Source: Rubricoccus marinus (GTDB taxonomy: Bacteria > Bacteroidota > Rhodothermia > Rhodothermales > Rubricoccaceae). From it: a stretch of 64,000 nt of DNA. Under the pieces are notes generated by a model. It was not told where the DNA came from and did not search any database. It worked only from the letters and a program-made list of their open reading frames with translations. The translations under genes and the position numbers were made by a program. Shown piece after piece: positions 53,525 to 53,918 of this stretch. The DNA is taken from positions 1,613,870 through 1,677,869 of the forward strand of contig NZ_MQWB01000001.1 of the NCBI RefSeq assembly GCF_002257665.1. Reading direction: 5' to 3'. How positions within the stretch are numbered: position 1 is the stretch's first letter; the number at the start of each line of letters is the position of its first letter.

Positions 53525-53918
53525 GTGCGCGTCGGCCTGTAAGCCGGATTCTGTCCCCGCCAGAGGCGCGCCCTAGCGGTGGACCGTCATCTATCTGCGC
53601 GGCCTACCCGCGTCGCTCCAGGCGGGCCGCCTGGCCTCTCGCGAGAGAGGGAACGCTGCGTGGCCTTGCACCCCCCGGGGTTTACCCAGCCGCGCCGGTC
53701 GCCCGAACGCGCTGGTGGGCTCTTACCCCACCGTTTCACCCATCACCTGTGCCCGAAGGCCATCGGCTGGTCTGTTTTCTGCTGCACATGCCGTCACCGG
53801 AGGCCTACGCCTCTGGCGCCTCCATTTTCATGGAGCGGGGTGCCCTTCGGTGTCCGGACTTTCCTCTCCGCCAGAGGCCGAGGCCCTATTGGAGCGACGG
53901 TCCAGCCGACGCGCCCCG
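53525..53918 (-). ncRNA. rnpB: RNase P RNA
   Basis: Class A RNase P RNA of about 390 nt. The universal 5' core GAGGAAAGTCCGGAC is the complement of 53858-53872; the 3' core with AGATAGATGACGGTCC and GGACAGAATCCGGCTTA is the complement of 53537-53600. P1 is proved by a perfect 10 bp pair: GCGCGTCGGC (complement of 53905-53914) with GCCGACGCGC (complement of 53527-53536). It cleaves tRNA 5' leaders. Three copies of the dispersed motif lie inside the gene (about 53560, 53810 and 53870), two of them able to lengthen variable helices. Ends are accurate to a few bases. Confidence 0.93.

What the first reader, a model, noticed from the sequence alone, without database searches (positions are those of the whole stretch)
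53525..53918. The motif lies inside the RNase P RNA gene
Three motif copies fall within rnpB, at about 53558, 53810 and 53870, in positions that look like variable helices between conserved cores, while the core segments are intact. A structural RNA has no codon pressure, so copies here show that the motif is not a by-product of protein composition or codon choice.
Basis: partly seen in the sequence, partly recalled or inferred. Interest (0 to 1): 0.7.

Follow-up and report, generated by a model that had tools for sequence, protein, structure and literature searches.

The report
Genome-wide ten-letter word inside rnpB
A ten-base word that occurs about 14,000 times in this bacterium, but only at chance level in its closest available relatives (which repeat different words), also sits in three flexible hairpins of the RNA enzyme RNase P, so whatever spreads it acts on DNA as such and not on proteins.

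Summary
Confirmed. rnpB (class A, minus strand, 53913-53524, 172 bits) carries GCCTCTGGCG/CGCCAGAGGC at 53558, 53809 and 53869. The copies form one arm of helices P19, P9 and P3; conserved cores are intact and no compared relative has them. The word occurs 14,176 times in the 4.43 Mb genome (1 per 312 bp, 3.2% of bases; reversed-word control 61) but at chance in the congener and 59 other relatives. Three copies in 390 nt are far above composition (P 4e-8) yet equal to this genome's non-coding density (8.7/kb, 3.4 expected). Insertion versus substitution stays open: the helices have normal length for the order, and the congener is unusually short there. In coding DNA 82% of copies align to the congener without gaps. 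tmRNA, 8 tRNAs and the readable rRNA have none. Family members show other words (GCTGGCGG, CCGCCTCGG) in thousands of copies, i.e. dialects. The word forms inverted pairs after stop codons, has no strand bias, and is depleted 15-36 fold on three accessory contigs, one a conjugative plasmid. This resembles Neisseriaceae DNA uptake sequences more than cyanobacterial HIP1; uptake itself is untested. A sequence-biased transformation/recombination drive is most likely (about 0.5).

The parts
53524..53913 (-). rnpB, RNase P RNA class A (5' end at 53913)
   Evidence: Rfam RF00010, 172.3 bits, model 1-367/367
53869..53878 (-). motif copy GCCTCTGGCG (RNA sense) in the 3' arm of helix P3 (53894-53867)
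   Evidence: exact match; hairpin -12.9 kcal/mol; absent in congener and other relatives
53809..53818 (-). motif copy CGCCAGAGGC (RNA sense) in the 5' arm of helix P9 (53818-53795)
   Evidence: exact match; hairpin -16.0 kcal/mol, z -2.4
53558..53567 (-). motif copy GCCTCTGGCG (RNA sense) in the 3' arm of helix P19 (about 53584-53553)
   Evidence: exact match; hairpin -21.7 kcal/mol, z -3.3
53930..53939 (+). motif copy just upstream of the rnpB 5' end, next to the conserved CTCCGTATCCT stretch
53470..53479 (+). motif copy (CGCCAGAGGC) downstream of the rnpB 3' end, beyond its own hairpin-plus-T-run terminator
53997..54040 (.). inverted pair of motif copies (53997 GCCTCTGGCG, 54031 CGCCAGAGGC) 43 nt downstream of the enolase stop codon, terminator-like place
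   Evidence: inverted pairs near stop codons are typical of this genome
54084..55379 (-). enolase gene (eno), convergent neighbour region of rnpB
   Evidence: Pfam PF00113 and PF03952; gene call
1..64000 (.). 241 copies of the motif across the window, 116 on + and 125 on -

Best explanation
SHOWN: the three rnpB copies are local instances of a species-specific 10-bp word (GCCTCTGGCG) that has spread over the chromosome to about 14,000 copies. It sits wherever sequence is free to change: intergenic DNA first, then variable codons, and in rnpB the three variable helices P3, P9 and P19, where each copy is one arm of a folded hairpin whose partner arm is complementary. INFERRED: the word is a self-recognition signal for taking up or recombining chromosomal DNA, working like the DNA uptake sequence (DUS) of Neisseriaceae. 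DNA fragments that carry the word are taken up or recombined more often, so every mutation that creates a copy at a tolerable place is favoured by biased conversion (molecular drive), whether or not the place is a protein gene. Copies in rnpB were fixed because those helices tolerate any sequence that still folds.
For: 14,176 copies against 61 for the reversed word; at chance in congener G001 and all other relatives. Dialects inside one family: GCTGGCGG 8020 copies in G001 and 7454 in G007 (controls 1599, 2023), CCGCCTCGG 4084, 3300 and 2523 in G004, G006 and G008 (controls 459, 241, 304). Non-palindromic word, no strand bias. Non-coding 8.7/kb vs coding 2.8/kb; convergent spacers 13.5/kb, divergent 5.1/kb; 81 of 92 two-copy spacers inverted, mostly starting within 30 nt of a stop codon, as reported for DUS (PMC3630211). 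Low on accessory contigs of the same genome: 6, 12 and 15 copies per 60 kb on C15, C14 and C11 against about 216 expected; C15 carries a relaxase, a Rep3 initiator and TrbI/VirB4-like genes; DUS are likewise sparse in mobile DNA (PMC7371117). ComEC in all family members and PilT/PilB-type ATPases in this genome. 0 of 44 motif sites conserved in the congener and sites lie at variable positions (5.8 vs 7.7 of 10 identical). rnpB helices fold with the motif in one arm.
Against: No uptake experiment, no receptor identified; ComEC and T4P ATPases are widespread and also occur in family members without these words. Congener G001 has its own word but no PilT-family hit (91% complete, 300 contigs). 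The density (1 per 312 bp) is somewhat above the 1 per 400-1100 bp cited for DUS. The accessory contigs could simply be recent arrivals. The organism is not known to be transformable, and this was not searched beyond two literature queries.
Confidence: 0.5

Rival explanations
1. HIP1-like word made by methylation-directed mismatch repair or another DNA-repair bias: a methyltransferase or repair protein that reads the word preserves mutations that create it (model of Elhai for cyanobacterial HIP1).
For: Density and observed/expected ratio (3200 per Mb, about 316-fold over base composition) are the same order as, and above, HIP1 (300-2700 per Mb, 55-228 fold; PMC4390886). Alternate words in related genomes also occur in cyanobacteria. 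One-base variants are scarce, so copies are well maintained.
Against: HIPs are palindromic and tied to methyltransferases; this word is not palindromic, and the own genome (97.7% complete) has no PF00145 and no PF01555 methyltransferase (other MTase families not tested). A repair bias should act on resident plasmids too, but C11, C14 and C15 are depleted.
Confidence: 0.2
2. Chi-like or other recombination/segregation signal read by a helicase-nuclease or chromosome-organising protein, kept by selection on the chromosome.
For: The G001/G007 word GCTGGCGG is one base from E. coli Chi GCTGGTGG (Chi sequence from general knowledge); chromosomal restriction fits.
Against: No orientation bias in any of 19 chromosome stretches or in the relatives, whereas Chi and KOPS are strand-biased; the inverted pairs after stop codons and the 10-bp length are not Chi-like.
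Confidence: 0.12
3. A mobile short palindromic element (like Rickettsia palindromic elements or the STRR repeats of cyanobacterial rnpB) that inserts into genes and structural RNAs.
For: Against the congener, each of the three rnpB sites is longer in this genome by 15, 12 and 11 nt, and non-coding sites are often gapped (8 of 10). Both members of the genus share a short P12 and lack P18, so short ancestral helices refilled by insertion are possible.
Against: Beyond the order-typical helices no extra length exists: P3 28 (order median 21, sister genus 34-36 or 30), P8+P9 45 (39; 40-42), P19 33 (40; 35-37); the congener is the shortest of all. No consensus extends beyond the 10-mer except weak preferences. 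82% of coding copies align ungapped to the congener.
Confidence: 0.12
4. By-product of base composition, codon choice or peptide preference.
For: Coding copies favour ASG and APEA readings, i.e. common residues and codons.
Against: Non-coding density is three times the coding density, rnpB carries three copies, expectation from a third-order Markov model is 1.9 against 462 in 124 kb, and congeners of equal composition lack it.
Confidence: 0.02

Closest known systems
DNA uptake sequences (DUS) of Neisseriaceae and uptake signal sequences (USS) of Pasteurellaceae
   Same: 10-bp non-palindromic word in thousands of copies, species dialects within a family, inverted pairs near transcript ends, intergenic preference, scarcity in conjugative elements (PMC3630211, PMC7371117)
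   Different: Higher copy number (14,176 vs about 2,200-3,600) and slightly higher density; many inverted pairs overlap into an 18-bp palindrome; different phylum; no receptor or uptake shown; pairs rarely followed by a T run
HIP1 and alternate HIPs of cyanobacteria
   Same: Very high density and strong maintenance, alternate words in some relatives (PMC4390886)
   Different: HIPs are palindromic octamers linked to methyltransferases; here not palindromic, two MTase families absent, plasmids depleted
STRR repeats in rnpB of heterocystous cyanobacteria (Vioque 1997, cited in PMC2858038; paper not held)
   Same: A genome-wide repeat lying inside the RNase P RNA gene
   Different: STRR are tandem heptanucleotide repeats (from general knowledge); here single dispersed copies in three separate helices

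Membership tests
RNase P RNA, bacterial class A (RF00010) | Full-length match over the curated score with conserved core | tested here: met
   172.3 bits vs 100, model 1-367; P18 is missing, as in the congener
DUS/USS | Short word in large excess over the whole chromosome | tested here: met
   14,176 vs control 61
DUS/USS | Related but different words (dialects) in related species | tested here: met
   own and G001/G007 words share CTGGCG; the CCGCCTCGG dialect does not contain CTG
DUS/USS | Inverted pairs at transcript ends | tested here: met
   81 of 92 two-copy spacers inverted, close to stop codons; T runs mostly missing
DUS/USS | Scarce in conjugative and other mobile DNA | tested here: met
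DUS/USS | Word raises DNA uptake or transformation; receptor pilin (ComP or analogue) | not testable with these tools
   ComEC and PilT/PilB-type ATPases are present, which is necessary at most
HIP1-like highly iterated palindromes | Palindromic word | tested here: not met
   GCCTCTGGCG is not its own reverse complement
HIP1-like highly iterated palindromes | Cognate DNA methyltransferase in the genome | tested here: inconclusive
   PF00145 and PF01555 absent; other MTase families not tested
Chi-type sites | Orientation bias with replication | tested here: not met
   19 chromosome stretches near 1:1
Inserted palindromic elements (RPE/STRR type) | Copies are extra DNA relative to empty sites | tested here: inconclusive
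   rnpB sites longer than congener but normal for the order; coding copies mostly ungapped

The most novel reading that the evidence does not exclude
A DNA self-recognition system of the uptake-sequence type exists in Rubricoccaceae (Rhodothermales), with dialects that switch between species of one genus, the highest density known for such a word, and a drive strong enough to rewrite three helices of an essential ribozyme.
Probability: 0.4. Interest if true: 0.85.

Novelty: new variant of a known kind. Interest (0 to 1): 0.66.

Why it matters
How short words come to fill a genome (uptake bias, repair bias or selection) is an open question for DUS, USS and HIP1. Here sister species carry different words, a resident conjugative plasmid is nearly free of the word, and a ribozyme shows where the word is tolerated; together these separate the models better than protein genes can. 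If it is an uptake word, DUS-type recognition would extend to a phylum where I found no report of it in the searches made.

Tried and rejected
Insertion reading from the congener alone: weakened after measuring helix lengths in about 30 relatives. Search for the 18-bp double motif in viral contigs: none. rRNA operon as a second structural-RNA test: 5 kb of it is masked as N, only about 0.9 kb is readable. Literature searches for uptake words in Bacteroidetes and for repeats in Rubrivirga gave nothing on point. Rickettsia palindromic element plus RNase P RNA: no paper held. The Vioque 1997 paper is not held.

Full report
What was checked. The stretch is a full-length class A RNase P RNA gene on the minus strand, 53913-53524, 172.3 bits. 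The motif is GCCTCTGGCG or its reverse complement CGCCAGAGGC, by far the most frequent 10-mer of the window with 241 copies. Further copies flank the gene at 53470, 53930, 53997 and 54031.

Chance. A third-order Markov model with the motif masked expects 1.9 copies in 124 kb where 462 exist, so 0.006 in 390 nt; three copies have P = 4e-8. Judged by the genome's own densities rnpB is ordinary: 1.25 expected at the genome mean (P 0.13) and 3.4 at the non-coding density (P 0.66). rnpB is filled like the rest of the non-coding DNA although much of it is conserved.

Position in the structure. By the Rfam alignment and by comparison with relatives the copies lie in P3, P9 and P19 (P19 is not paired in the Rfam model and is assigned from its place between the P2 3' strand and the P4 3' strand). 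Folded alone, each stretch forms a hairpin with the motif in one arm: P3 -12.9, P9 -16.0, P19 -21.7 kcal/mol. The partner arms are complementary with wobble pairs or a bulge rather than a second perfect copy. Conserved core segments are intact. The order-wide conserved stretches hold no copy.

Insertion or substitution. Against the only congener (G001) the three sites are longer by 15, 12 and 11 nt and hold nearly all of the length difference, which looks like insertion. Against the wider order the picture changes: P3 is 28 nt (order median 21, sister genus 30-36), P8+P9 45 (39; 40-42), P19 33 (40; 35-37), and the congener is the shortest or nearly so at each. Both genus members also have a short P12 and lack P18, so it remains possible that the helices shrank in the genus and were refilled here. 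I leave this open. Genome-wide in the aligned 15 kb, 34 coding motif sites are 82% ungapped against the congener, so substitution dominates in genes; non-coding sites are mostly gapped, but so is about half of the non-coding control. None of 44 sites is conserved and they lie at variable positions.

Other structural RNAs. tmRNA (376 nt), eight tRNAs (636 nt) and the readable 5S and 23S (907 nt) have no copy; 6.9 expected at the chromosome density, P = 0.001. Most of the rRNA operon is masked, so this says nothing about 16S. rnpB is thus special among structural RNAs only in having large free helices.

The word in the genome. 14,176 copies in 4.43 Mb, 7049 and 7127 per strand, control 61: 3200 per Mb, 3.2% of bases, about 316 times base composition. 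The congener has 99 (control 101) and all other relatives are at chance. Relatives have words of their own: GCTGGCGG in G001 (8020, control 1599) and G007 (7454, 2023); CCGCCTCGG in G004 (4084, 459), G006 (3300, 241) and G008 (2523, 304). G007 carries its own word in P3 of its rnpB, which at its density is expected about once per gene of this size. The organism is an unnamed member of the Rubrivirga group of Rhodothermales, judged by the nearest named contigs.

Distribution. Non-coding 8.7 per kb, coding 2.8 per kb. Convergent spacers 13.5, tandem 9.8, divergent 5.1 per kb. Of 92 spacers with two copies 81 have them inverted, 42 of these overlapping (nearly all as 18-bp palindromes), and the first copy usually starts within 30 nt of a stop codon; T runs are present in only a minority. 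No strand bias in 19 chromosome stretches. Neighbouring copies are inverted more often than expected. Accessory contigs of the same assembly are poor in the word: C15 6 per 60 kb, C14 12, C11 15, against 3.6 per kb on the chromosome; C15 has a relaxase, a Rep3 initiator, TrbI and a VirB4-like protein, so it is a conjugative plasmid. C10 is intermediate (35 in 20 kb).

Mechanism. These features match those published for DUS: dialects, inverted pairs at transcript ends, and scarcity in mobile elements (PMC3630211, PMC7371117). The HIP1 model (PMC4390886) fits the density but not the non-palindromic form, the absence of PF00145 and PF01555 methyltransferases or the poor plasmids. Chi-like function is disfavoured by the lack of strand bias. 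I put a DUS-like uptake or recombination drive at about 0.5. That the copies are instances of a genome-wide word unrelated to protein coding is close to certain; that the word acts in uptake is inference. ComEC is present in all nine family genomes and PilT/PilB-type ATPases in this one, but the congener shows none of the latter, which is a weak point.

Noticed in passing
L047-L066; genomes G001, G004, G006, G007, G008: Other members of the family have different high-copy words: GCTGGCGG (G001, G007) and CCGCCTCGG (G004, G006, G008). GCTGGCGG is shared across two genera while other members of G007's genus use CCGCCTCGG.
   Followed up: partly
L205, L206, L209-L215 (own contigs C11, C14, C15): Accessory contigs nearly free of the motif; C15 is a conjugative plasmid, C11 carries a secretin and a T2SSE/PilB-type ATPase.
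   Followed up: partly
window 53524-53913 and L034: rnpB of this genus lacks helix P18 and has a very short P12 compared with the rest of the order.
   Followed up: no
whole own genome: One-base variants of the word are unequal: changes at positions 1 and 7 and T to G at position 4 are most common (GCCGCTGGCG 45 in 124 kb), the last resembling the congener's word.
   Followed up: no
G001: No PilT-family ATPase hit in the congener although all other family genomes have them; may be assembly gaps (91% complete).
   Followed up: no
window 53930-53939: A motif copy abuts the conserved CTCCGTATCCT stretch just upstream of rnpB, a likely promoter region.
   Followed up: no
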